Shown one piece after another: positions 12,091-55,353 of a DNA stretch of 64,000 bases. The stretch lies in assembly GCF_000820005.1 (NCBI RefSeq), contig NZ_CDBL01000073.1, forward strand, positions 142,152-206,151, in the 5' to 3' direction. The notes beneath the pieces were generated by a model that was given only the letters and a program-made list of their open reading frames with translations, searched no databases and had not been told where the DNA came from. Position 1 is the stretch's first letter; each line of letters opens with the position of its first letter. Source of the stretch: Aeromonas piscicola (GTDB lineage Bacteria; Pseudomonadota; Gammaproteobacteria; Enterobacterales; Aeromonadaceae). Both the position numbers and the translations under genes were made by a program.

Positions 12091-12472
12091 GCGGCTCACA
12101 CCCTTCTGCCCTTCGAGCATAAAAATGCAAAAAAGACGCCCTTGCGGCGTCTTTTCTTTTTCCAATCGTTTGCGCCTCAATTTTCTGCTCATTAGCCGCT
12201 TTTTGGCCTCATCGCCCCTGTCAGATGTGACAGGGGCGCTTTGCGGATCCGGTACTAGGCTCTGCCATGCCAATTGAGACCGGTGCTGTGAGGCGGCGAT
12301 CGTGGCAAAGGGGAGGGCCAGCAGGCGCGTTAACCAGCGCAAGATGGCCCATCGTCATACCATTGAACTTTCTCGGTATGTCACCCCAGTGGAGACCAGC
12401 AACCACTTGAATCAACGGGGCGGAACCCGAACAGCCAAACGAGTAGGGACAAGAGATCACGGAGGGTTTGTT
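12091..12472. other. Gap between guaA and the stefin-like gene
   Basis: After the guaA terminator this 382-bp gap holds a second perfect hairpin at 12213-12238: CGCCCCTGTCA / TGACAGGGGCG, 11 bp with a GATG loop and no T-tract. Its role is unknown; it could be a backup terminator or a structured RNA. The remaining 230 bp must contain the promoter for the next gene, but no clear pair is visible. Open frames crossing it lack ribosome binding sites. Confidence 0.45.
12131..12160 (+). terminator. guaA terminator
   Basis: Stem AAAAGACGCC / GGCGTCTTTT, loop CTTGC, then CTTTT. A near-identical hairpin ends the next gene (12815-12840). Confidence 0.88.
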
Positions 12473-12745
12473 ATGTCAGAACAAGCAGTGTTGGTGGGTG
12501 GATGGACCGCATATCACAAGCTGACCGCCGAGGATCAGGCGGTATTTGACCAGGCGCTGAAAGGATTTGTCGGGGTGCAGTACGTACCCTTTGAAGTCTG
12601 CACCCAGGTGGTGGCCGGCACCAACTACCGCTTCAAGTGCAAGAGCACAGTGCCGCTTGCCAAACCGATCCATGGCGAAGCCGTGGTGCAGATCTTCAAA
12701 TCACTGGACGGGGATGCCCATATCACCTCCATCACCCCGATCTGA
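12473..12745 (+). CDS. Cystatin (stefin)-like small protein
   Basis: A 90-residue cytoplasmic protein with no signal peptide. It contains the hallmark of cystatin protease inhibitors, QVVAGTNYRFK, at about residues 44-54, preceded by a long helix-forming segment (EDQAVFDQALKGFVG) and followed by VVQIFKSLDGD, which lines up with VFKSLPG of human stefin A. A glycine pair near the N-terminus (VGGW) sits where the cystatin N-terminal trunk enters the protease cleft. Stefins are tight inhibitors of papain-like cysteine proteases; bacterial homologues are known, but their targets are not. The start ATG has GGAGG seven bases upstream, so I chose it over upstream codons. Monocistronic with its own terminator. 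Confidence 0.8.
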   Translation: MSEQAVLVGGWTAYHKLTAEDQAVFDQALKGFVGVQYVPFEVCTQVVAGTNYRFKCKSTVPLAKPIHGEAVVQIFKSLDGDAHITSITPI

Positions 12746-12814
12746 TTTGGGGGCGGGGCAAGGCGGGGAGGCGGAATAACCTCCAACCTGTTTGCTCCAA
12801 ATCCTGAAAATAAG

Positions 12815-12840
12815 AAAGACGCCTTAGGGCGTCTTTTCTT
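12815..12840 (+). terminator. Terminator of the stefin-like gene
   Basis: Stem AAAGACGCC / GGCGTCTTT, loop TTAG, then TCTTT. Nearly the same sequence as the guaA terminator. Confidence 0.85.
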
Positions 12841-13315
12841 TATCTACGATCCGGCACCGTTGATATGTGGCCAGCATTGGTACTTATTATTTAATTTTTT
12901 GATCTTGCTCAGGAAACTATCATCATCCTCTTTTTCTTATCTTCCTTGCTCACTAGGATAGTCGTATGGAGTGGTCTCTTTGGTGTCATCTATGAGCCAA
13001 GCTAAGTACATTGCGTGGGTTAAAAGCAGCCAAACTAGGGGTTGTCGTGCGGTAGTGTGGCTGTTATTGGGGTACGCCGCGAGTATGTTGAACGCCAGTG
13101 GGGACCGCAGTGGATGGAAGCGAATGCGGCCAGATGCCAGTGACAGTTTGGTAATATTATGATTTAAAATGAGTTTTTGAGGTGGTTATGAAGATGAAGC
13201 GGAGTTATACGGAAGGTACTGCTATTGAATTAGTACCGCCTTCCATCTAATCACTGTTATACGCTCTTTCAATGTTACTAATATCAATTTGCAATATAGG
13301 GACTTTTGAAACCTA
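12841..13315. other. A+T-rich leader of the STAND gene island
   Basis: From about 12850 the base composition drops sharply relative to the flanks. An open frame of 63 codons at 12971-13162 has no family resemblance and a poor ribosome binding site; I do not call it. GTTATACGC (13256-13264) is repeated inverted at 17162-17170 beyond the STAND gene. A GGAAGGTACT...AGTACCGCCTTCC imperfect hairpin lies at 13211-13244. No integrase or transposase is present. Confidence 0.4.
13256..13264 (+). repeat. Left copy of 9-bp inverted repeat flanking the STAND gene
   Basis: GTTATACGC here and GCGTATAAC at 17162-17170 are exact inverted copies, 52 bp before and 22 bp after the large open frame. They coincide with the A+T-rich segment and could mark the ends of a mobile unit or a cassette, but nine bases may also match by chance. 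Confidence 0.35.
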
Positions 13316-16300
13316 ATGATATTTTTTGAACTTGAACCTTCTGATATCTCAAATCTCAACGATGCTGATCTAAGAGAAATGGTCGCTAGGTTGTGTGAAG
13401 TGGAATTGATTCGCCAAGATATTCAGACATCTTGTGTTCTGTGGGGGGGAGCGCAGGAAGCTGCTGATGGTGGTCTTGATGTTCGAGTTGTCGATGCTAT
13501 CCCTTTATTAAAACCTGGCTTTGTAAGTCGTGAAAATACTGGTTTTCAAGTAAAGAAAAACAATATGAGTAAAGCAGCTTGCAGAAATGAGATGCTTGAT
13601 AAGGGAACGCTAAAAACTGTTATATTAGATATCTTAGGAAAAAAAGGCGCTTATATAATTGTTAGTGGCAAAGATGATTGTTCTGATAAAATGCTATCAG
13701 AACGTCTTCTGGGAATGAAATCTGCGCTCGAAGGCTTGCCAGATAGCGAAGATCTTCTGATTGACTTTTATGGTCGGGATCGACTCAGCGCATGGTTGAG
13801 ACAATTTCCTGGGGTTGCCCTGTGGGTTCGCTCTAGGCTAGGCAAGCCATTATCTGGATGGCGACCGTTTGGGAGATGGACTTCCACCCCAGTCGATAAA
13901 GATGATGAGTTCTTGCTTGACGAACACCCTTGCGTCATCGATATGAATTCACATCACAAAGAGCCTATAGCGATTTCGGATGGAATCAGGCTTGTGCGTG
14001 AAAGATTACAAAGATCTGGCTCGGTGGTACGAATAACAGGCCTGTCAGGAGTAGGAAAAACACGCTTTGCTCAGGCACTTTTTGAAAATGATGTATGCGA
14101 TAACTCTCTGCCGAGAGCGAATGTAATATATGCAGATCTTGGTGATGACTTAACTCCAACAGCATCTGAGCTTGTCTCGTACTTGATAGCTAATGATTTT
14201 TCAAGCTATTTGGTATTGGATAATTGCCCACCAGATGTTCATAGAAAACTGCAAAAGCAGGTTTCGGCAAATCAAGCAAAGTTGAGTCTTCTTTCTATCG
14301 AGTACGATATTTCAGATGACCGCCCAGAAGAAACAGAAGTAATACACATCGAACCATCAAGCGAGGAGACCGTATCTAAACTTATTCAAAAGAGGTTTCC
14401 GTCTCTAGGGCGTGTTAATGCCGATAAAGTTGCAGAGTTTTCCGGAGGGAATGCACGTGTTGCGATCGCATTGGCAAGTAGGGTGGGCACAGATGAGACC
14501 TTGGCTAATTTTTCTGATGAAGACTTGTTTCAGAGGCTCTTCAATCAAAGAAAAGGGACAACCGAAAGTTTGCTTGAAAGCGCAGAGGTTCTATCCCTAG
14601 TTTATTCGTTCAATGTTTCCCCGAAAGAGCTTAATGATGAATTGAGCACTCTTTCTAGAATTGGCGGATTTGAACGTGACAGGTTGAATCGCAGTCATGC
14701 AGAGCTATTGCGGAGGCAGTTATCGCAAAAGCGGGGAAACTGGCGAGCAGTACTCCCGCATGCAGTAGCTAACCGTCTCGCACGGCGAGCTCTTCAGAAC
14801 ATCGATCCTGATAAAATTAATGCTGAGTTGTTAAAGGCTGATAATTTTCGTTTATTCAAGTCATGCGCTCATCGACTAGGATATCTGCATGACTTTGAAC
14901 CTGCTAGATATCTCGCCAATACATGGATGAAGATTGATGGGCCATTTCATAACATTGCACGGTGCAATGCTGAGTTGCTTATGGCACTAACTCACATTGC
15001 ACCAGTGTTTCCAGATGTAGTGTTAATCGCTATAGAGAATGCTTCGGAATCTCCAGATTTCTGTTCACGAGATAATCAAAATTTCTCTACGTTCGTTCGA
15101 TTACTTAGAAAAATAGCATATGAAGATAAGTACTTTGACCGTGCTGCCGGGCTAATTCTTCGTTTTGCGGAAACAGAAAATGTTGGCGAGAACAACAATA
15201 GTATCGCTAGTCAATTGGCGAGCCTTTTTTCATTATACCTCTCTGGGACACAGGCTACGCCAACGCGAAGACATTCTTTTGTGAAAAGAATGTTAGGTGT
15301 TGACAACTTGAGACAGCTTGAGATTGCGCAGGATATTCTTAAGTCTGCGTTTGAGGCTTCTCATTGGAGCTCATTTGGAGAATTTGATTTTGGCGCTCGT
15401 AGCAGGGACTTTGGATGGGAGCCGACAACGAATAAAGAGATATTAGACTGGTACGTAGGTTATATTGAGCTATTAGTGCCATTTTTAGATTCGAACAATG
15501 AACCCCTTTGCAATTGGGCAAAGATGATACTAGCAAACCACTTTGTAGGACTATGGAGCTATGCTGGCTGCTTTGACATTCTCGAAAACATAGTGCGTAA
15601 ATATGGCACTGGCGGTAAATGGCCAGATATGTGGATGGCCATTAAACGGACAATCCATTACAACGGGAAGAACCACACACCTGAGTTATTTAAAAGAATT
15701 GAAGCACTTGAGCATTTTTCCGCACCGGCGGATCCCTATTTCGAAATCGAGGCATATGCTCTGACTAACACATGGGATCACGTAGAATTTAGGGGGGAGA
15801 GTAACACAGAAGATTCTGAAAAAATTCATCAGAAGATAGAAAAGCTAGGTGAGCTTGCGTCATCTGAACCAGATTACCTTGAAAGATTGGCGCCAAGGTT
15901 ATGGGAAAAAAATATTGATGCGCTTTGGTCATTCGGCAAAGGGTTGGCTAAAGGTTCATCAGACCAAGCTTTAACCTTTGATACGCTTGTCCGCCTGATG
16001 AAAAAGCAAGAGCTAGAAGTAGTAGAGCCTATCCTCTTTCGCGGTTTTATTGCTGGTGTTCATTCCTGCGACCCTAGCTTGTCTCGGAGACTTCAAGAGT
16101 CTGTATTAGGTGTGCCAGAGCTTAAAAAGTATTTTGTTAATATTTTGACTGCAACGCCGATAGCCCCTTGGGGGACAAAAAAACTTATTGAGCTGGCGAA
16201 GGCTGGTGAACTGGAAGCATGGAGATTTCAACAGATAAGTTACGGTCGAGTTCATGAATCCATTCCTGATGATGATTTAACAGAATTACTTGCCGCGCTT

Positions 16301-17140
16301 AATGGTTTAACCGATGGGATTTTTTCAACCATTGAAATTTTGAGTATGCGATTCTTTAATAAAAAGGGTAGCAACTACAGTCCTAACTATGACCTGCGGT
16401 CTGTCGGAAGACAGGCCATTTTGAAGCTTTTATCAATGCATAGGGACGAAATTAGCAGGCGGCAGTTCCATGGAATAGACCGTGTTATTGCAGAGTGTTT
16501 ATCAGAGCCAGCACCGGAGAATGAAATTCGCAATATTATTAACTTGCTCTGCAATGGCATTGAGACGTATCGATTATATGGCTTCGAATTAGAAACTATC
16601 ATAGCTTATCTAGTGGAAAGCTATCCTGAATTTGTACTGGATCGAGTGTTAATAGATAGTAATAATAGCGAACAACTTATATATTTACTTTTCAAAGACA
16701 GGGGCCTCCGTAGTATCTCACCATTGAACTTAGTGCCTATCGAGCGCGTGCTACATTGGTGTAATGGAAATCAAGATAGGATTCATAAAGTAGCAGGTGC
16801 CGTTTCGGCATACACGTCCTTAGACAAGGAATTACAGCCACTAGACAACCCAAAGAAAGTAATTCTCAGTCATCACATTAGCTCCCTTTTAGATGCTGCA
16901 GAAAACAAAGTAGAGATAGTTGAAGCTATTTTCTCTAGGTCTTATCCTAGTGGATGGTCAGGATCACTTGCCGATATTCTTGAAGTTCGTTCGGAGGCAT
17001 TCGCAGAGCTATTAACTCATGTGTCACCTGAGGTGCGAGAGGTGGCTAAGACCAAGCTTTCTCTTCTAAATAGGGCTATTAGAGAGAATAGGGAGAGTGA
17101 GGTCGAGGAGTACAACCGGCGGGAGCAAAGATTTGAGTAG
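13316..17140 (+). CDS. STAND-type NTPase with N-terminal nuclease-like domain, candidate anti-phage protein
   Basis: A 1274-residue protein without close relatives that I can name. Residues 1-170 resemble a restriction-endonuclease fold: GGLDVRV with D55 and, 23 residues on, FQVK with Q78-x-K80, the D...(E/Q)xK spacing of Mrr-like nucleases. The NTPase follows: P-loop GLSGVGKT (242-249), Walker B YLVLDN (D302) and a SGGNARVA segment near 377, as in STAND/AP-ATPases. Residues 450-1274 are largely helical and repetitive, probably a sensor of TPR or similar type. Nuclease, STAND ATPase and helical sensor in one chain is the plan of Avs and NLR-like defence proteins, which cut nucleic acid on recognising a phage protein. 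The gene stands alone, is much more A+T-rich than its neighbours and uses rarer codons, so it was probably acquired. Its ATG has only a distant AGGGA. Confidence 0.7.
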   Translation: MIFFELEPSDISNLNDADLREMVARLCEVELIRQDIQTSCVLWGGAQEAADGGLDVRVVDAIPLLKPGFVSRENTGFQVKKNNMSKAACRNEMLDKGTLKTVILDILGKKGAYIIVSGKDDCSDKMLSERLLGMKSALEGLPDSEDLLIDFYGRDRLSAWLRQFPGVALWVRSRLGKPLSGWRPFGRWTSTPVDKDDEFLLDEHPCVIDMNSHHKEPIAISDGIRLVRERLQRSGSVVRITGLSGVGKTRFAQALFENDVCDNSLPRANVIYADLGDDLTPTASELVSYLIANDFSSYLVLDNCPPDVHRKLQKQVSANQAKLSLLSIEYDISDDRPEETEVIHIEPSSEETVSKLIQKRFPSLGRVNADKVAEFSGGNARVAIALASRVGTDETLANFSDEDLFQRLFNQRKGTTESLLESAEVLSLVYSFNVSPKELNDELSTLSRIGGFERDRLNRSHAELLRRQLSQKRGNWRAVLPHAVANRLARRALQNIDPDKINAELLKADNFRLFKSCAHRLGYLHDFEPARYLANTWMKIDGPFHNIARCNAELLMALTHIAPVFPDVVLIAIENASESPDFCSRDNQNFSTFVRLLRKIAYEDKYFDRAAGLILRFAETENVGENNNSIASQLASLFSLYLSGTQATPTRRHSFVKRMLGVDNLRQLEIAQDILKSAFEASHWSSFGEFDFGARSRDFGWEPTTNKEILDWYVGYIELLVPFLDSNNEPLCNWAKMILANHFVGLWSYAGCFDILENIVRKYGTGGKWPDMWMAIKRTIHYNGKNHTPELFKRIEALEHFSAPADPYFEIEAYALTNTWDHVEFRGESNTEDSEKIHQKIEKLGELASSEPDYLERLAPRLWEKNIDALWSFGKGLAKGSSDQALTFDTLVRLMKKQELEVVEPILFRGFIAGVHSCDPSLSRRLQESVLGVPELKKYFVNILTATPIAPWGTKKLIELAKAGELEAWRFQQISYGRVHESIPDDDLTELLAALNGLTDGIFSTIEILSMRFFNKKGSNYSPNYDLRSVGRQAILKLLSMHRDEISRRQFHGIDRVIAECLSEPAPENEIRNIINLLCNGIETYRLYGFELETIIAYLVESYPEFVLDRVLIDSNNSEQLIYLLFKDRGLRSISPLNLVPIERVLHWCNGNQDRIHKVAGAVSAYTSLDKELQPLDNPKKVILSHHISSLLDAAENKVEIVEAIFSRSYPSGWSGSLADILEVRSEAFAELLTHVSPEVREVAKTKLSLLNRAIRENRESEVEEYNRREQRFE

Positions 17141-17472
17141 CTATTTTGCCTCTTGTCGGGGGCGTATAACAAAGCTCTGCTGTCGGAGAATTTTTACGCA
17201 GTGCTCCAAAATTACCGCAGAGCGCGGCGTGAGAGGCACATGTGATGGACTGTACCGTAGGGTGCAATGCGCTGCGCTTATTGCACCCTACGTTTTTCGT
17301 TAATCCGCTGGGGTGGTGTGGCGGAGTGCTGAGCCTTGCCAAAGCAACAAAAGGGGCGATCTGCGCCCCGAATTCTTTATAATGCCCCCCTTTAAAACCG
17401 TCGGACGCAGGTTCGGCGCGAGCTGATGGCTGGCTACGCCATCAGGCAGATGATCAGGATTGAGAAACGGTT
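17141..17472. other. Gap after the STAND gene, with REP-like palindrome and LRR-kinase promoter region
   Basis: The first 30 bp carry the right copy of the inverted GTTATACGC repeat (17162-17170). A REP-like palindrome lies at 17256-17292. Further on, GGGGCG / CGCCCC (17353-17369) forms a small hairpin, followed by a perfect TATAAT (17378-17383) without a good -35, the likely -10 of the LRR-kinase gene about 90 bp downstream. Confidence 0.45.
17256..17292. repeat. REP-like palindrome
   Basis: Thirteen-base perfect arms CGTAGGGTGCAAT / ATTGCACCCTACG around GCGCTGCGCTT. Hairpins with a GTAGGGTGCAAT core are scattered through many proteobacterial genomes and resemble REP sequences moved by TnpA-REP (RAYT) transposases. 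T5 follows directly, so it may also terminate transcription. Confidence 0.7.
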
Positions 17473-18846
17473 ATGCATACTCTGGAACAGCTGCGTGCGG
17501 GTGAACTGTGCGGCGCCCGCCATCTGAAGCTCTCGGAAAATCTCGTGGAGTTCCCACCCGAGATCCTCAGCCTTAAAGAGACGCTTGAGGTGCTGGATCT
17601 GACCGGCAACCAGCTAAGCTCGCTCCCTGACGAGCTGGCCGGTTTCAGCAAACTGCGCATCATTTTCTGCTCCGAGAATCGCTTTACCGTGCTGCCCGAG
17701 GTGCTGGGGCGCTGCCCGGCACTCACCATGGTGGGCTTCAAGGCCAACCAGATTTCCACAGTCCCCGCCGCGTCGCTGCCAGTGGGCTTGCGTTGGCTGA
17801 TCCTGACTGACAACGCCATCGAACAGTTGCCCGATGAGTTGGGTCAGTGCGCCGCCCTGCAAAAGCTGATGCTGGCGGGTAATCGCCTGCGCGAGCTGCC
17901 TGCCAGCCTTGCCAACTGCAGTAATCTGGAGCTGCTGCGGATCGCCGCCAACCGCATTGAGCGCTTCCCCGACTGGCTGCTGGCGCTGCCGCGCCTCGCC
18001 TGGCTCGCCTATTCCGGCAACCCTTTTAGCGAGAGGGAGGAGGCGCGGGCCATCGATGTGGATCATGTGGCTCATATCGCCCCAGTGCCGTGGCGGGCGC
18101 TTGAGTTGGGTGAGCTGCTGGGGCAGGGGGCCTCTGGGGTGATCCACAGTGCCACCCGCATCACTTGCGACGGATTGCAGGGTAACGGGCCGCGCTCGGT
18201 GGCGGTCAAGCTGTTCAAGGGGACTGTGACCAGCGATGGCTTGCCCCATTGCGAGATGGCGGCGTCGCTGGCGGCCGGCACTCATCCCAACCTGATCAGG
18301 GTGTTGGGGAAGGTGGCGGATCACCCCTCCGGCATGCCGGCGCTGGTGATGGAACTGATAGACCCAACGTTTGCCAATCTGGCGGGCCCGCCGAGTCTGG
18401 ACTCCTGCACTCGCGACGTCTATCCCGCAGGGTTGTCGTTCCCCCCGGCTGCCGTGCTCGCCATGGCGCAGGGCATAGCGGCTGCCGCGGGGCATCTGCA
18501 TGAGCGAGGCATCATGCACGGCGATCTCTATGGCCATAACATACTGCACTCCTTGCAAGGGAAGGGTCAGGTGCTGCTCGGCGATTTTGGCGCTGCCTCT
18601 TGCTACGACCGCACGGAATGCGTGCTGGCCGAGGGGCTGGAGCGGATAGAGGTGAGGGCCTTTGGCTGCCTGCTGGACGAGTTGCTGGCACGCTGCCAGC
18701 CACAGAGCGAGGCACTGCAGGATCTTGCCCTGCTGGCTCGGGCATGCCTCTGCGAGCAGGTGTTGCAGCGACCCTCGTTCGCGCAGATCTCGGCCAGGAT
18801 AACGGCAGTGGCGGCCATGATGGAGGCCGAGCCCGTCTGTGCCTGA
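17473..18846 (+). CDS. Leucine-rich-repeat protein with C-terminal protein kinase domain
   Basis: A 457-residue soluble protein. Residues 14-185 hold about seven leucine-rich repeats of the LxxLxLxxNxLxxLP type (for example LEVLDLTGNQLSSLPDEL). Residues 208-450 form a Ser/Thr kinase-like domain: glycine loop GQGASG (217-222), lysine K246 in VAVKLF, catalytic HGDLYGHN (349-356) and DFG (371-373). All main catalytic residues are present, though the usual HRD is HGD, so activity is plausible. LRR plus kinase is a eukaryote-like combination found in scattered proteobacteria; substrates are unknown to me. G+C matches the chromosome, so it is not part of the A+T-rich island before it. ATG at 17473 follows GAGAAACGG. 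Not in an operon. Confidence 0.8.
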   Translation: MHTLEQLRAGELCGARHLKLSENLVEFPPEILSLKETLEVLDLTGNQLSSLPDELAGFSKLRIIFCSENRFTVLPEVLGRCPALTMVGFKANQISTVPAASLPVGLRWLILTDNAIEQLPDELGQCAALQKLMLAGNRLRELPASLANCSNLELLRIAANRIERFPDWLLALPRLAWLAYSGNPFSEREEARAIDVDHVAHIAPVPWRALELGELLGQGASGVIHSATRITCDGLQGNGPRSVAVKLFKGTVTSDGLPHCEMAASLAAGTHPNLIRVLGKVADHPSGMPALVMELIDPTFANLAGPPSLDSCTRDVYPAGLSFPPAAVLAMAQGIAAAAGHLHERGIMHGDLYGHNILHSLQGKGQVLLGDFGAASCYDRTECVLAEGLERIEVRAFGCLLDELLARCQPQSEALQDLALLARACLCEQVLQRPSFAQISARITAVAAMMEAEPVCA

Positions 18847-28047: not shown

Positions 28048-31000
28048 TCAGTGACTGGTATGGCTGGCAAGATCTGCCAGCAAGCCATCCACCAGTTTCA
28101 GGCGCATGGCGCGGTCCGGGGTCGGCACCTGGAAGCGCAAGCGGGTCGGCCCATCCATTTTGTAGATGCGCGGCTGCTCGGAGAGCAGCTTGACCAGATA
28201 GCCTGGATTGACCCGGGTCTCCTGGGTGAAGTCCAGGTAACCGCCGCGCTCGCTCATCTCCACCCGGCGAATACCGAGGGCGGTGGCGCGCTGGCGGAAG
28301 GCGGCCAGCTCCATCAGGGTTTTGGTTGCCTCCGGCAGCAGGCCGAAGCGATCTATCAGCTCTACCTTCAACTCACGCAGCTCCTGCTCGTCCGCCGCGC
28401 TGGCGATGCGCTTGTACATGGACAGACGCATGTTGACGTCCGGTATGTACTCCTCCGGCAACAGGGCGGGCAGGCGCAGCTCCACCTCTGTGTGCTGGCT
28501 CATCAGCTGCTCCAGCGATGGCTCCTTGCCGTTTTTCAGCGCCTCGACCGCCTGCTCCAGCATCTCCATGTAAAGGGTGAAGCCGACCGATTCTATCTGG
28601 CCGCTCTGATCGTCGCCCAGCAGCTCGCCGGCACCGCGGATCTCCAGATCGTGGGTCGCCAGCGCAAAGCCGGCGCCGAGATCTTCGAGCGAGGCGATGG
28701 CTTCGAGCCGCTTGACCGCATCTTTGCTCATCAGCTTGGGATGGGGAGTGAGCAGGTAGGCATAGGCCTGGTGGTGGGAGCGGCCAACCCGGCCCCGCAG
28801 CTGGTGCAGCTGGGCCAGCCCCAGATGGTCGGCGCGGTCCATGATGATGGTGTTGGCACTTGGCACGTCTATGCCGGTCTCTATGATGGTGGTGCAGACC
28901 AGCAGGCTGAAGCGCTGGTGGTAGAAGTCCGACATGACTCGCTCGAGATCGCGCTCACGCATCTGGCCGTGGGCGATGCCGATACGCGCTTCGGGCACCA
29001 GCTCGGCGAGATCGCTGGCGCATTTTTCGATGCTCTCCACGTCGTTGTGCAGGTAGTAGACCTGGCCGCCGCGCTTGAGTTCACGCAGCACGGCCTCGCG
29101 GGTGACGGCGGGCTCCTGCTGGCGCACGAAGGTCTTGATGGCGAGCCGCTTGGCGGGCGGGGTGGCTATGATGGAGAGATCCCGCATGCCGGCCATCGCC
29201 ATGTTGAGGGTGCGCGGGATCGGCGTCGCCGTGAGGGTGAGGATATCCACGTCGGCGCGCAGCGCCTTGATCTTCTCCTTCTGGCGTACCCCGAATCTGT
29301 GCTCCTCATCGACGACCAGCAGCCCCAGATCCTTGAAGGTGAGCTCTGAACCCAAGAGTTTGTGGGTGCCTATGATGATGTCGACCTTACCCTCGCGCAG
29401 CTCTTTCATGACGGCATTCTGCTCCTTGGCGGAGCGGAAGCGGCTCAACACCTCGACCCGCACCGGCCAGTTGGCGAAGCGATCGCGGAAGTTGTCGTAG
29501 TGCTGCTGGGCCAGCAGGGTGGTCGGCACCAGCACTGCCACCTGCTTGCCGCCATGGACCGCCACGAAGGCAGCCCGCATCGCCACTTCGGTCTTGCCAA
29601 AGCCCACGTCGCCGCATACCAGCCGGTCCATGCTCTTGGCCTGACACATGTCCCCCAGCACAGCGTTGATAGCGTTGAGCTGATCTTCTGTCTCCTCGAA
29701 CGGGAAACCGGCGGCAAACTGGCGGTAGGCCTCCCTGTCGTGCTGGAAGGCAAAACCGTGACGGGCCGCCCGCAGGGCGTACACATCCAGCAGCTCGGCC
29801 GCCACGTCGCGCACTTTCTCCGCCGCCTTGCGCCGCGCCTTGACCCAGGCCTCGCCGCCGAGCTTGTGGCTGGGCGGGTTATCCGAACCGGTATAACGGC
29901 TGATAAGATGCAGGCTGGTCACCGGCACGAACAGCTTGTCGCCCCCGGCATATTCCAGGGTCAGGAACTCGGTGGGCAGACCGCCGGCATCTATGGTCTC
30001 GAGGCCGAGATAGCGGCCGACCCCGTGATCCAGGTGCACCACCGGCTGGCCCTGGGTCAGTTCGCCGAGGTTGCGGATCACGGCGTCCGAGCTCAGGTTC
30101 TTGCTCTTCTCCCGCGCGCGTTTGCTGCGGACCTTGCCCCCCAGCAGCTCGGTCTCGGTGATGAGGGCGAGCGCGTCCTTGCCGCTCTCCTGCAGCAGGA
30201 AGCCTCGCTCCAGTGGCGCCACCAGCAGGCCGTGGCGCGCCTTGCTCGCCATGAAGGACTCGAGGGAGGCGAACTCCTTGGGTTGCAAGGATATTCGTGC
30301 CAGCAGATCGCCGAGCACTTCCCGGCGCCCTTCGGATTCCACCGCAAACAGGGTGCGACCCGTGAAGCTGTCCAGGAACTGGCCCAGCGCCAGCATGGGC
30401 TGCTCCTTGCTGTGATCGAGCTGCAGGTCGGGCAGGGGGGCTATGGGGAGATCCCGCTGGCCGGCCCCGCCGTCGGTGGCGGCCTCCTGCAACCGCACGG
30501 CGCCATAGTGGCCCAGCGCCGCAAACAGCTGCTCCACCGGCAGGTAGATCTGTTGAGGGGGCAGCAGCGGGCGGGTGTTGTCCCAGCGTCTGTCCTCATA
30601 ACGCTGGCCTATGTCGTTCCAGAACCGCTGGGCCGCGGGATAGATATCCCCCACGGTGAGCAGCAGGGTGTTGTCCGGCAGATAATCGAACAGGCTGGCG
30701 GTCTGGCTGAAGAAGAGCGGCAGATAGTATTCGATGCCGGCGGGCCAGCGCCCCTTGCTGACCTCCTGATAGACGGAGCCCTCGGCGCGCGACAGCTCGA
30801 ACTGTTCGCGAAATTGGCCACGAAACAGCTCAATGGCGGCCTCGTCGGTGGGAAACTCCCGGGCCGGCAGCAGGCTGACCGTCTTGACCGGTTCGCTGGA
30901 GCGCTGGGTCTCGGGATCGAACGGGCGTATGGAGTCCACCTCGTCATCGAAAAAGTCGATGCGATAGGGGCTGTTGCTGCCCATGGGGAAGAGATCGAGC

Positions 31001-53776: not shown

Positions 53777-54820
53777 ATGGGTAATGCGGCTAAGGTCGGA
53801 GATATTGGAACCGACCATGACGGGTTTCCACCGACCAAGATTATCTCCGGCTCGTCAGATGTATTTATTGATGGTCTTCCTGCTGCTCGACTCGGTGACC
53901 CGCTTGAACCTCATGACAAACCCAATAACCCACCACATCCCAGGTTTATCGCTGCGGGCTCTTCCACCGTCTTTGTTAATGGTCAGCCACTCGCGTTCAC
54001 AGGGAAGGGGGTTTCTTGTGGTGGTGTAATCATTGGTGGGGGAACTGTCACGGTTGGCGATGGAGCTCCATCTGCCCGTGCCGCCGCGATTGCTCCAGCC
54101 ACTAGCCCTGTGGAAATTCCCGCATCATCACCCGGTTTTTGGCCTCCTTATAACCCCCTGACTGGTGAGTACCTTGATGTCGTTTATACACAGGCGGCAC
54201 AAACCGTTGCTGTGCTGACATTTGAAGAGCTCCAGGAGCTTTGGAAGGAGCTCAACGCCAAAGACAACTTGGGGGATGCAAAATCTATCAAAGACGCTGG
54301 TGAACGAATTCGGCTCGCTCAATCTACCGCTAAAGCATTAGGTGGTATGGGGGTAATTGCTTACACAAAAGTTATCAATGGCGAGCCCTATACGATCATC
54401 AAGAACTACAAGCAGGTTCACAAAACGATCCCAGGTAATATCTGGAAGGCCAGCAATCCCAAAATTCTTAGGTTGGGTATAGGTGCAAAGGCAAATGCCC
54501 ACTTGGTAAAGATGGGTTTTTTGGCTGATTTTGTCTTTTCTGTATCTATCAACGTTATTGATTACATCTTGAAAGATGAAGTCACGATGGTCGACCTCTT
54601 CAGTAATGTAGGTGTCGATCTTGTTAAAGGTACGCTTGCCAATGGTGTAGGCATCATTGCAGCAGGTGTTGTGGCTACAGTCTTTGGGCCTGGGATACTG
54701 TTAACTGGGACAGTATTTGCTTTGGCAACGATTGTTGCTGGTAAACTCATCGACTTTGCCGACGAAGAAGCAGAGCTCTCTGAGATGATGAAACAAGCGG
54801 TTAAGGCGAAATTTGAATGA
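53777..54820 (+). CDS. PAAR-domain protein with hydrophobic C-terminal domain, candidate toxin
   Basis: A 347-residue protein. Residues 1-95 are a PAAR domain: repeating GSSDVFIDGLPAARLGD and GSSTVFVNGQPLAFTG, with zinc ligands at H14, H46, H54 and C81. Such domains cap the spike of contractile machines (type VI secretion or phage tails) and carry effectors. After a Pro-rich linker (100-130) lies a region of unknown fold, and the last 72 residues contain two hydrophobic helices (about 289-328) followed by a charged tail, which suggests insertion in membranes as in colicin-like or pore-forming effectors. GGGGACA precedes the ATG at 53777. The next gene overlaps by four bases and looks like its immunity protein. 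G+C is lower than in the tail genes. Confidence 0.75.
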   Translation: MGNAAKVGDIGTDHDGFPPTKIISGSSDVFIDGLPAARLGDPLEPHDKPNNPPHPRFIAAGSSTVFVNGQPLAFTGKGVSCGGVIIGGGTVTVGDGAPSARAAAIAPATSPVEIPASSPGFWPPYNPLTGEYLDVVYTQAAQTVAVLTFEELQELWKELNAKDNLGDAKSIKDAGERIRLAQSTAKALGGMGVIAYTKVINGEPYTIIKNYKQVHKTIPGNIWKASNPKILRLGIGAKANAHLVKMGFLADFVFSVSINVIDYILKDEVTMVDLFSNVGVDLVKGTLANGVGIIAAGVVATVFGPGILLTGTVFALATIVAGKLIDFADEEAELSEMMKQAVKAKFE

Positions 54821-55353
54821 CGACTGTGCATGTCTCATGGCAGATGCGGGCTAGTGGATTGGTGGTCGCGTTACTCGGGATCGGTGGCGTTTGGATGGCC
54901 ATGGTATTTGGTTCTGAATTCTTGGATCTGCTTGCACTGACACCTGCAGATCCGTTGCGAATGAATGACTGGCGAGGTTGGTTTGCAATCTTCATTGGCT
55001 TACTTTCGACCCCCTTCATGCTGTATGCCGGTGGGAGATTGATGTTTTCTATTGCCATACCTGAGCCAGACCTTTCTTCAACGGCTGTTAAGCGACGGGG
55101 GATCGTTGTCATTTCTCTGATTATTGTTGCTGCTGTTCTGGGACTGCTGACGCAAAAAATCAGTATGTCGAGTATTGAGCGTTTGGGATGGGAGCAGTGT
55201 TACGTCAAACAGACGAGCTGGCGTTTTGGCAAGGACCTCTACTCCCAAAATTGTGGTGCACAAGGGCTAATGAAACTGGATCAGGCTTTCGACAAGCTCT
55301 CTCTGGAAGCACTGAAAGAGAAGCTTAACAAAGAGATGTTTGAGCAAAAATGA
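54817..55353 (+). CDS. Three-helix membrane protein, candidate immunity protein
   Basis: A 178-residue protein with three predicted helices (about 12-34, 54-77, 94-112) and a hydrophilic C-terminal domain with two cysteines (C128, C146) that may form a disulfide if periplasmic. The start overlaps the stop of the PAAR gene by four bases (ATGA), typical of effector-immunity pairs. Immunity proteins against membrane-active effectors are often small inner-membrane proteins. I recognise no named family. Its stop is immediately followed by a terminator. Confidence 0.6.
   Translation: MTTVHVSWQMRASGLVVALLGIGGVWMAMVFGSEFLDLLALTPADPLRMNDWRGWFAIFIGLLSTPFMLYAGGRLMFSIAIPEPDLSSTAVKRRGIVVISLIIVAAVLGLLTQKISMSSIERLGWEQCYVKQTSWRFGKDLYSQNCGAQGLMKLDQAFDKLSLEALKEKLNKEMFEQK

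What the first reader, a model, noticed from the sequence alone, without database searches (positions are those of the whole stretch)
13316..17140. Solo 1274-residue nuclease-STAND protein in an A+T-rich island
Seen: D55/Q78-x-K80 nuclease-like motif, P-loop 242-249, Walker B D302 and a long helical C-terminus in one chain, in a segment of much lower G+C than both flanks and without partner genes. Known: Avs and NLR-like anti-phage proteins combine nuclease, STAND ATPase and helical sensor this way. Inference: a compact single-gene defence system, shorter than typical Avs and possibly of an undescribed subfamily.
Basis: partly seen in the sequence, partly recalled or inferred. Interest (0 to 1): 0.78.

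Follow-up and report, generated by a model that had tools for sequence, protein, structure and literature searches.

The report
Phage-defence gene on an integron cassette
A single large bacterial gene that probably senses infecting viruses and cuts DNA is a divergent relative of a known defence family, and it appears to have arrived as a mobile gene cassette in one of many integrase-less docking sites scattered through this genus.

Summary
In detail: ORF 13316-17140(+), 1274 aa, 42.6% G+C in a genome near 60%, with D55, Q78/K80, P-loop 242-249 and D302 as stated. It is not an undescribed family: PADLOC PD-Lambda-4_A matches end to end (1014 bits). The window protein belongs to a divergent branch (about 32% identical to canonical members of its genus; 91% to an Alcanivorax, 75% to a Vibrio plasmid protein). 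Models support a STAND ATPase and a helical solenoid; an Mrr-like nuclease rests on invariant motifs, topology and a modest profile match. Four homologues keep ATPase and solenoid but carry a DUF676 hydrolase instead of the nuclease. The partner PD-Lambda-4_B was found in 1 of 28 records holding A. The island is an integron gene cassette (13257-17229) with an attC like that in an Alcanivorax cassette array. It sits behind an integrase-less attI-type element that is dispersed in the genus (28 of 37 genomes by my count). Of 29 readable copies 27 are followed by TT[AG]; 22 of these 27 hold downstream the exact complement of their own first bases (4.8 expected). I found no description of such dispersed sites in the open library searched. 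Defence activity is inferred, not tested.

The parts
12888..13256 (+). integrase-less attI-type element; right end is the G of G^TT; left edge approximate
   Evidence: Dispersed in the genus; different DNA to the right of the G in the copies inspected; the G007 copy lies divergently beside an integron integrase gene
13257..17229 (+). integron gene cassette, 3973 bp, with the defence gene as its only gene
   Evidence: Starts TTATACGC and ends in an attC whose R'' (GCGTATAAC, 17162-17170) is complementary to G plus the cassette start over 9 of 9 bases; same boundary and attC type in the Alcanivorax cassette array L008
13316..17140 (+). PD-Lambda-4_A-like protein, 1274 aa
   Evidence: PADLOC PDLC03991, 1014 bits, residues 1-1274 on profile 1-1283
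13316..13855 (+). N-terminal, probably Mrr-like PD-(D/E)xK nuclease domain (residues 1-180)
   Evidence: D51/D55, Q78, K80 invariant in 20 of 20; helix-strand-strand-strand-helix-strand order with D55 directly before strand 56-58 and Q78-K80 in strand 75-80; hhalign to an Mrr_cat profile score 30.1-32.4, probability 40-57%, against at most 19.2 in 60 shuffles
13856..14875 (+). STAND ATPase region with P-loop 242-249 and D302 (about residues 181-520)
   Evidence: AF2 model of residues 1-520, mean pLDDT 82.4; Foldseek matches to CED-4, NLRC4, NAIP/NLRC4, NRC2, NOD2 with low TM-scores; EfAvs5 9jap Z 10.5, rmsd 7.5, 223 residues
14876..17137 (+). all-helical solenoid, presumed sensor (about residues 521-1274)
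   Evidence: AF2 model of residues 493-1274, mean pLDDT 82.7, nearly all helix; HEAT/ARM-type matches such as transportin-3, CAND1, beta-catenin
17162..17229 (+). attC site, without its last core because the cassette is inserted
   Evidence: Bottom-strand hairpin of the circle form, -28.3 kcal/mol, R''/R' paired
12462..12745 (+). conserved small gene after guaA, left border of the hotspot
   Evidence: 28 of 37 genus genomes match 12462-12880; variable DNA follows it
17473..18846 (+). leucine-rich-repeat/kinase-like gene, right border of the hotspot
   Evidence: Matched in 20 of the 29 loci compared; the other nine are cut by contig ends, lie elsewhere or (L053, L079) show no match; also in A. 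caviae KAM479

Best explanation
A single-gene, NLR-like antiphage protein of the PD-Lambda-4_A family. Shown by computation: family membership, invariant nuclease-type motif, STAND ATPase, helical solenoid, effector swapping among relatives, cassette ends. Inferred: the solenoid binds a phage component, ATP binding drives oligomerisation, and the N-terminal Mrr-like nucleases are brought together and cut DNA, stopping the infection by loss of phage DNA or death of the cell. The gene travels as a 4-kb integron cassette and is docked at an integrase-less attI-type element in a variable site downstream of guaA, where other genomes of the genus hold canonical PD-Lambda-4_A or other cargo.
For: PD-Lambda-4_A over full length, E=0. 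Motifs invariant in 20 of 20 nuclease-type N-termini. STAND fold, solenoid. 4 of 4 homologues examined that lack the nuclease carry DUF676 on the same core. Four of the five genus genomes with the gene hold it at the guaA site (G000, G027, G033, G034). 14 viral contigs and 43 plasmid records carry relatives. Cassette ends. Cassette statistics. First cassettes at other copies of the element include an Mrr-type nuclease, a helical-REase-type protein and a type IIG restriction enzyme.
Against: No phage experiment on this protein or branch; the sections of the 2022 paper that I read do not name PD-Lambda-4, and the review table that names it gives only a P-loop NTPase. PADLOC names a second component, absent here. 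Pfam finds nothing in residues 1-180 of the window protein and the PDB profile search only an unrelated hydratase at E 1.3; the Mrr profile match has a probability of only 40-57% and, read from the display, aligns DGGxD but puts QxK two columns out of register. The top structural rows for the ATPase are general AAA proteins such as NSF (Z 11.0), and TM-scores are 0.32 or lower by query length. Solenoid Z-scores (up to 11.4) are not distinctive. No sigma-70 promoter above chance upstream (1 found, 1.4 expected).
Confidence: 0.66

Rival explanations
1. The protein needs PD-Lambda-4_B, so this solo copy is an inactive or cross-complemented remnant.
For: PADLOC has A and B models; B matches 49 bp downstream of A in one viral record, G155, and B is absent from G000.
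Against: B is absent from 27 of 28 records that hold an A-type protein, canonical A included (0 of 12 with B, 1 of 16); B rings in a control E. coli in which A does not; the window ORF is intact with conserved motifs. Some records are fragments.
Confidence: 0.15
2. An Avs receptor with the same sensing targets as Avs1-4 (terminase or portal, recalled).
For: Same domain order; EfAvs5 gives one of the longest STAND alignments (9jap, Z 10.5, 223 residues).
Against: Only PD-Lambda-4_A models matched in PADLOC at E<=1; the C-terminal profile finds nothing in the PDB by sequence at E<=0.1.
Confidence: 0.12
3. The island was put in by a transposon or MITE that targets TTA, not by integron recombination; the repeat on the left is that element.
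For: The element is dispersed, with a fairly constant left edge, and 26 of 29 copies are followed by TTA.
Against: The same cassette, cut at the same base, lies in an Alcanivorax array; own-end R'' present in 22 of 27 copies against a mean of 4.8 in 2000 swaps; one copy lies beside an integron integrase gene. The element itself may still have spread by transposition.
Confidence: 0.08
4. A housekeeping or signalling STAND protein with no defence role.
For: No phenotype is known for this branch.
Against: Patchy presence (6 of 149 genomes, own one included), plasmid and viral-contig carriers, nuclease/hydrolase swap.
Confidence: 0.07

Closest known systems
PD-Lambda-4 (attributed to Vassallo et al. 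2022, PMC9519451, by PMC10952713; sections 6, 7, 8 and 10 of the former read, one passage of the latter)
   Same: Full-length match of the A protein, same three regions and invariant motifs
   Different: About 32% identity to canonical members of the genus; no B partner; carried as an integron cassette
Avs / bacterial NLR-like receptors (e.g. EfAvs5, PDB 9jap)
   Same: Effector-STAND-helical order; STAND region aligns; effectors swapped among relatives
   Different: Not matched by an Avs profile; sensing target unknown
Integrons as stores of defence genes (2025 papers cited in PMC12409362, of which I saw passages; the papers themselves were not read)
   Same: Defence gene on a gene cassette
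   Different: Here the cassette lies behind a dispersed integrase-less attI-type element, not in a large array, and is about 4 kb long
CALINs (passages of PMC6715197 for A. veronii and of PMC12444791 for Xanthomonas)
   Same: Cassettes away from any integrase gene
   Different: PMC12444791 counts a CALIN from two attC sites up; here a single cassette sits next to a recognisable attI-type element
Class 4-like Aeromonas chromosomal integron (PMC10609294; abstract and passages)
   Same: Integron of the genus with intI, attI and cassettes
   Different: One complete integron; dispersed copies were not in the passages I saw; its attI was not compared with the element here

Membership tests
PD-Lambda-4_A protein family | Full-length match to the PADLOC A model | tested here: met
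   1014 bits, residues 1-1274 / profile 1-1283; full-length canonical genus members score 2080-2094
PD-Lambda-4 system (A+B as named by PADLOC) | Adjacent B gene | tested here: not met
   No B in G000 or 11 other records; B in 1 of 16 further records
PD-Lambda-4 system | Protection against phage | not testable with these tools
   needs plating
Avs | Match to an Avs profile in PADLOC | tested here: not met
   Only three PD-Lambda-4_A models at E<=1; that PADLOC 2.0.0 holds Avs models is recalled
Avs | Recognition of terminase or portal (recalled) | not testable with these tools
   needs experiment
STAND ATPases | P-loop, Walker B aspartate and STAND/AAA-like fold | tested here: met
   GLSGxGKT and D302 invariant in 11 of 11 sequences; model matches CED-4/NLRC4/NRC2/NOD2 and EfAvs5, with general AAA proteins ranked as high or higher
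PD-(D/E)xK (Mrr-like) nucleases | Conserved D...(D/E/Q)xK in an alpha-beta core | tested here: met
   D55, Q78, K80 invariant in 20 of 20; order of helices and strands
PD-(D/E)xK (Mrr-like) nucleases | Fold or profile match to a known member | tested here: inconclusive
   hhalign probability 40-57%, score above all 60 shuffles; no Pfam match for the window protein; residues 1-180 not fold-searched alone, and the VIA rows span 180-410
PD-(D/E)xK (Mrr-like) nucleases | DNA cleavage | not testable with these tools
   needs assay
Integron gene cassette | Gene between G^TT ends with an attC able to fold with R''/R' paired | tested here: met
   same cassette in an array with attC-type sites in L008
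Integron gene cassette | Excision or insertion by an integrase | not testable with these tools
   no IntI over the cut-off in G000
Integron attI site | Lies beside intI | tested here: not met
   No intI beside the window copy; of the copies inspected the G007 one lies beside an intI, which is itself broken
Integron attI site | Cassettes begin at its G^TT | tested here: met
   27 of 29 copies followed by TT[AG]; own R'' downstream in 22 of 27

The most novel reading that the evidence does not exclude
Aeromonas-type genomes carry many integrase-deleted 'mini-integrons': dispersed attI-type docking sites, mostly loaded with one or a few gene cassettes, which together form a scattered cassette store worked by IntI in trans, in which defence genes (among them a 4-kb PD-Lambda-4_A gene) move between chromosomal loci and species without a large array, and which searches that require two attC sites overlook.
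Probability: 0.55. Interest if true: 0.75.

Novelty: new variant of a known kind. Interest (0 to 1): 0.56.

Why it matters
It places a provisionally named defence family (PD-Lambda-4) among NLR-like proteins with a swappable effector, shows that its second named component is usually absent, and ties it to integron traffic shared by Aeromonas and Alcanivorax, perhaps Vibrio. If the dispersed attI-type sites are working docking sites, cassette traffic in this genus goes on at many loci rather than in one array, which can be tested directly and would enlarge the known reach of integrons.

Tried and rejected
Rejected: DUF4365 as the N-terminal family (one of 20 members at E 0.0029, but hhalign found nothing). 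My first attC finder missed even the Alcanivorax attC and was replaced by end complementarity and folding. GroEL matches of the N-half profile (E about 0.006-0.05) were judged chance; the same list has the plant NLR Roq1 at E 0.07. No match in phages or by blastn in E. coli. The hits cannot themselves show the right end of the element because the query stopped there; the end is shown by the different right flanks. The search for attI-like/solitary-attI terms was swamped by 'multiple attitude' papers and shows nothing either way. No Avs chain other than EfAvs5 was seen in the 50 VIA rows, which excludes nothing.

Limits: the 31 element copies come from 25 chosen regions and the window, not from all 120 matches. 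Two were skipped for Ns and two lack TT, leaving 27; related loci are not independent, and self-pairs in the swaps were scored zero, which lowers the control slightly. The Mrr profile had 24 rows, at least one of them (L154) not an Mrr sequence; the 11-row version was filtered on GGxD, so that motif is circular there. My attempt to map the register by script mis-assigned the template columns, so the register is read from the display. In one search the border of L053 and of L076 was guessed. From the structure alignments L132 (stop) and L141 (partial, 23%) were left out of both halves, L134 (stops in the range given) and L139 (partial) of the C-terminal half. No background rate of PADLOC hits for non-cassette genes was measured.
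Full report
What is there. The genus is most likely Aeromonas: the guaA end is 91.1% identical to a named A. caviae record against about 81% for the best Klebsiella record (5 of 90 records shown), and the order guaA - small gene - ... - LRR/kinase gene - the next gene recurs there (the last by eye).

What the protein is. PADLOC's PD-Lambda-4_A model matches residues 1-1274 over profile 1-1283 with 1014 bits; the only other matches at E<=1 are two further PD-Lambda-4_A models. Pfam and NCBIfam give only weak matches, mainly to P-loop families, and phmmer finds nothing in the PDB at E<=1. PMC10952713 attributes PD-Lambda-4 to Vassallo et al. 2022 and lists it under P-loop NTPases (one passage). 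That paper, PMC9519451, describes 21 systems selected from E. coli fosmids by phage challenge (abstract and four sections read); the sections that I read do not name PD-Lambda-4 itself. Only two papers in the held library contain the name, neither of them on its mechanism by title. Over the full length the window protein is 91% identical to an Alcanivorax protein, 75% to a Vibrio anguillarum and 52% to a Burkholderia plantarii plasmid protein, and 32% to the canonical type of its own genus. A viral contig holds one whose best segment is 87% identical.

Domains. AF2 models of residues 1-520 and 493-1274 have mean pLDDT 82.4 and 82.7 (alignments of 14 and 12 rows). The N-terminus has helix 16-33, strands 41-43, 56-58 and 75-80, helices 86-93 and 101-108, and strand 112-117; D55 lies directly before strand 56-58 and Q78-K80 in strand 75-80. 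D51, D55, Q78 and K80 are invariant in 20 of 20. A profile of 20 N-termini gives hhalign scores of 30.1 and 32.4 against two versions of an Mrr_cat profile, above the maximum of 19.2 in 60 column shuffles, but with probabilities of only 40% and 57%; in the first alignment DGGxD lines up and QxK is two columns out. So the nuclease is likely, not proved. The middle part matches CED-4, NLRC4, NRC2, NOD2 and clamp-loader ATPases at low TM-scores; in the VIA list NSF-type AAA chains lead at Z 11.0, and the SIR2-STAND protein EfAvs5 follows at Z 10.5 over 223 residues with rmsd 7.5. The C-terminal part is a helical solenoid of HEAT/ARM type; Z up to 11.4 is not distinctive for such folds.

Effector swap and partner. 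Four homologues whose match begins after, or well inside, the nuclease region (G146, Lelliottia, Vibrio halioticoli, Enterobacter roggenkampii) are about 1375 aa long and have a DUF676 alpha/beta-hydrolase N-terminus above the Pfam cut-off, 4 of 4 examined. This is the modular logic of NLR-like defence proteins (recalled). PD-Lambda-4_B was found in 0 of 12 records with an A-type protein, G000 included, and in 1 of 16 others (G155, 49 bp downstream of A by coordinates, with stops inside the match), while B rings in a control E. coli in which A does not. The solo state is therefore the rule in these 28 records; some viral records are fragments.

Where it sits. A was found in 6 of 149 genomes of the neighbourhood, the own one included. 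Five of these are of the genus, and 4 of the 5 (G000, G027, G033, G034) have it between the guaA-linked small gene and the LRR/kinase gene; G021 has it on another contig. In G027 the gene is split by a contig break, and the second half lies next to the kinase gene. Other genomes hold different DNA at the site. The canonical copies there show no match to the right half of the left element, so two branches of the family seem to have reached one hotspot by different routes.

The cassette. In Alcanivorax (L008) the gene lies in what reads, by eye, as a run of cassettes separated by attC-type sites; its own cassette begins G^TTATACGC and ends in an attC. That genome has an IntI over the cut-off (G149), not shown to be near the array. 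The window has the same start at 13256/13257 and the same type of attC ending at 17229; start and R'' are complementary over 9 of 9 bases, and the circle form folds as expected of an attC bottom strand (-28.3 kcal/mol). A cassette in G008 at the same guaA site has the same attC type (by eye) and encodes a protein with a helical-REase match. The viral copy and the Vibrio copy keep what look like degenerate versions of the attC (by eye).

The docking element. The 377 bp to the left of the cassette match 33 of 37 genus genomes, with 120 matches; by my count of the listing, 28 of 37 have a match to the right half, up to eight matches in one genome (G032), and G000 has three. In 31 copies taken from 25 regions and the window, the shared sequence ends at the G and the DNA to the right differs. 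Of the 29 that could be read, 27 are followed by TT[AG] and 26 by TTA; two are not (L061, L120). Of the 27, 22 contain, in the up to 6.5 kb held downstream, the exact 7-base R'' that complements their own first bases, against a mean of 4.8 and a maximum of 12 in 2000 swaps; with 9 bases 13 against 0.28. Five do not. The longest ORF that starts within 500 bases begins within 62 bases of the G in 28 of 31 copies, 29 from the genus and 2 from plasmids. In G007 the element lies divergently beside an integron integrase gene, itself with two stops. Several copies retain the start of that gene and the sequence beyond its end with the middle missing (by eye), so I read them as integrase-deleted integrons; the window copy keeps no clear part of intI. 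IntI above the cut-off is present in 4 of 37 genus genomes and not in G000. How the copies spread is unknown; a fairly constant left edge leaves transposition open. Similar elements lie on plasmids of Pseudomonas mendocina and an Enterobacter, each followed by a gene; only the first showed its closing R''. No phage record matched.

Cargo. Of 30 first-cassette proteins other than the window's (28 from the genus, 2 from plasmids), 20 were scanned singly against PADLOC and 4 had matches at E<=1e-3: Mrr-type (L110), AAA ATPase of PtuA/AriA type (L118, a broad family), type IIG restriction enzyme (L107) and helical REase (L073); 16 of the 20 had none. All 30 were tallied at 1e-5, where 25 of 113 families are shown. 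I measured no background rate.

Literature. Integrons as stores of defence genes are in print (passages of PMC12409362, which cites the 2025 papers; those were not read). CALINs are reported for A. veronii (PMC6715197, passages) and at several loci in Xanthomonas, where 20 defence-related cassette gene groups are also counted (PMC12444791, passages). A class 4-like Aeromonas integron with attI is described (PMC10609294, abstract and passages). The rows listed show no title or start of abstract on dispersed integrase-less attI sites; most subscription papers are not held.

Verdict. The given finding is a good observation of a known kind of defence protein in a divergent form. Its carriage as a cassette behind a dispersed attI-type element is the part that may be new. 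Defence activity, trigger and recombination are inferred.

Noticed in passing
G023:C26 (L110 2028-2831): An Mrr-type restriction nuclease gene (Mrr_cat 96 bits) is the first cassette gene behind another copy of the attI-type element.
   Followed up: partly
G018:C5:28354-28752(-): A DUF4365 match lies about 0.8 kb from a copy of the element at 29579-29687(-), in the cassette direction; inferred from coordinates only.
   Followed up: no
L143 (Enterobacter plasmid pJBIWA003_2), 5001-5577: The attI-type element, followed by a small gene, lies downstream of umuDC-like genes on a conjugative plasmid.
   Followed up: partly
L080, L125, L126, L127: PD-Lambda-4_A-like proteins with a DUF676 hydrolase in place of the nuclease.
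   Followed up: yes
G029:C1:349564-350507 and 4144349-4145292: Two pairs of partial integron-integrase matches with the same scores, besides a complete one in the same genome.
   Followed up: no
window 17255-17300: Hairpin-like repeat (GTAGGGTGCAAT...ATTGCACCCTAC) that recurs next to the cargo, and in part next to the kinase gene, in many genus genomes.
   Followed up: no
window 53777-55353: A second low-G+C stretch: a protein with a PAAR-like N-terminus and a following small membrane protein, beside a VgrG/baseplate-like gene on the other strand; looks like a type VI effector pair (names recalled, not searched).
   Followed up: no
NZ_AP026896.1: A 4.94-Mb record filed as plasmid pKAM479_3 of A. 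caviae carries guaA and the same gene order, so it is probably a chromosome.
   Followed up: partly
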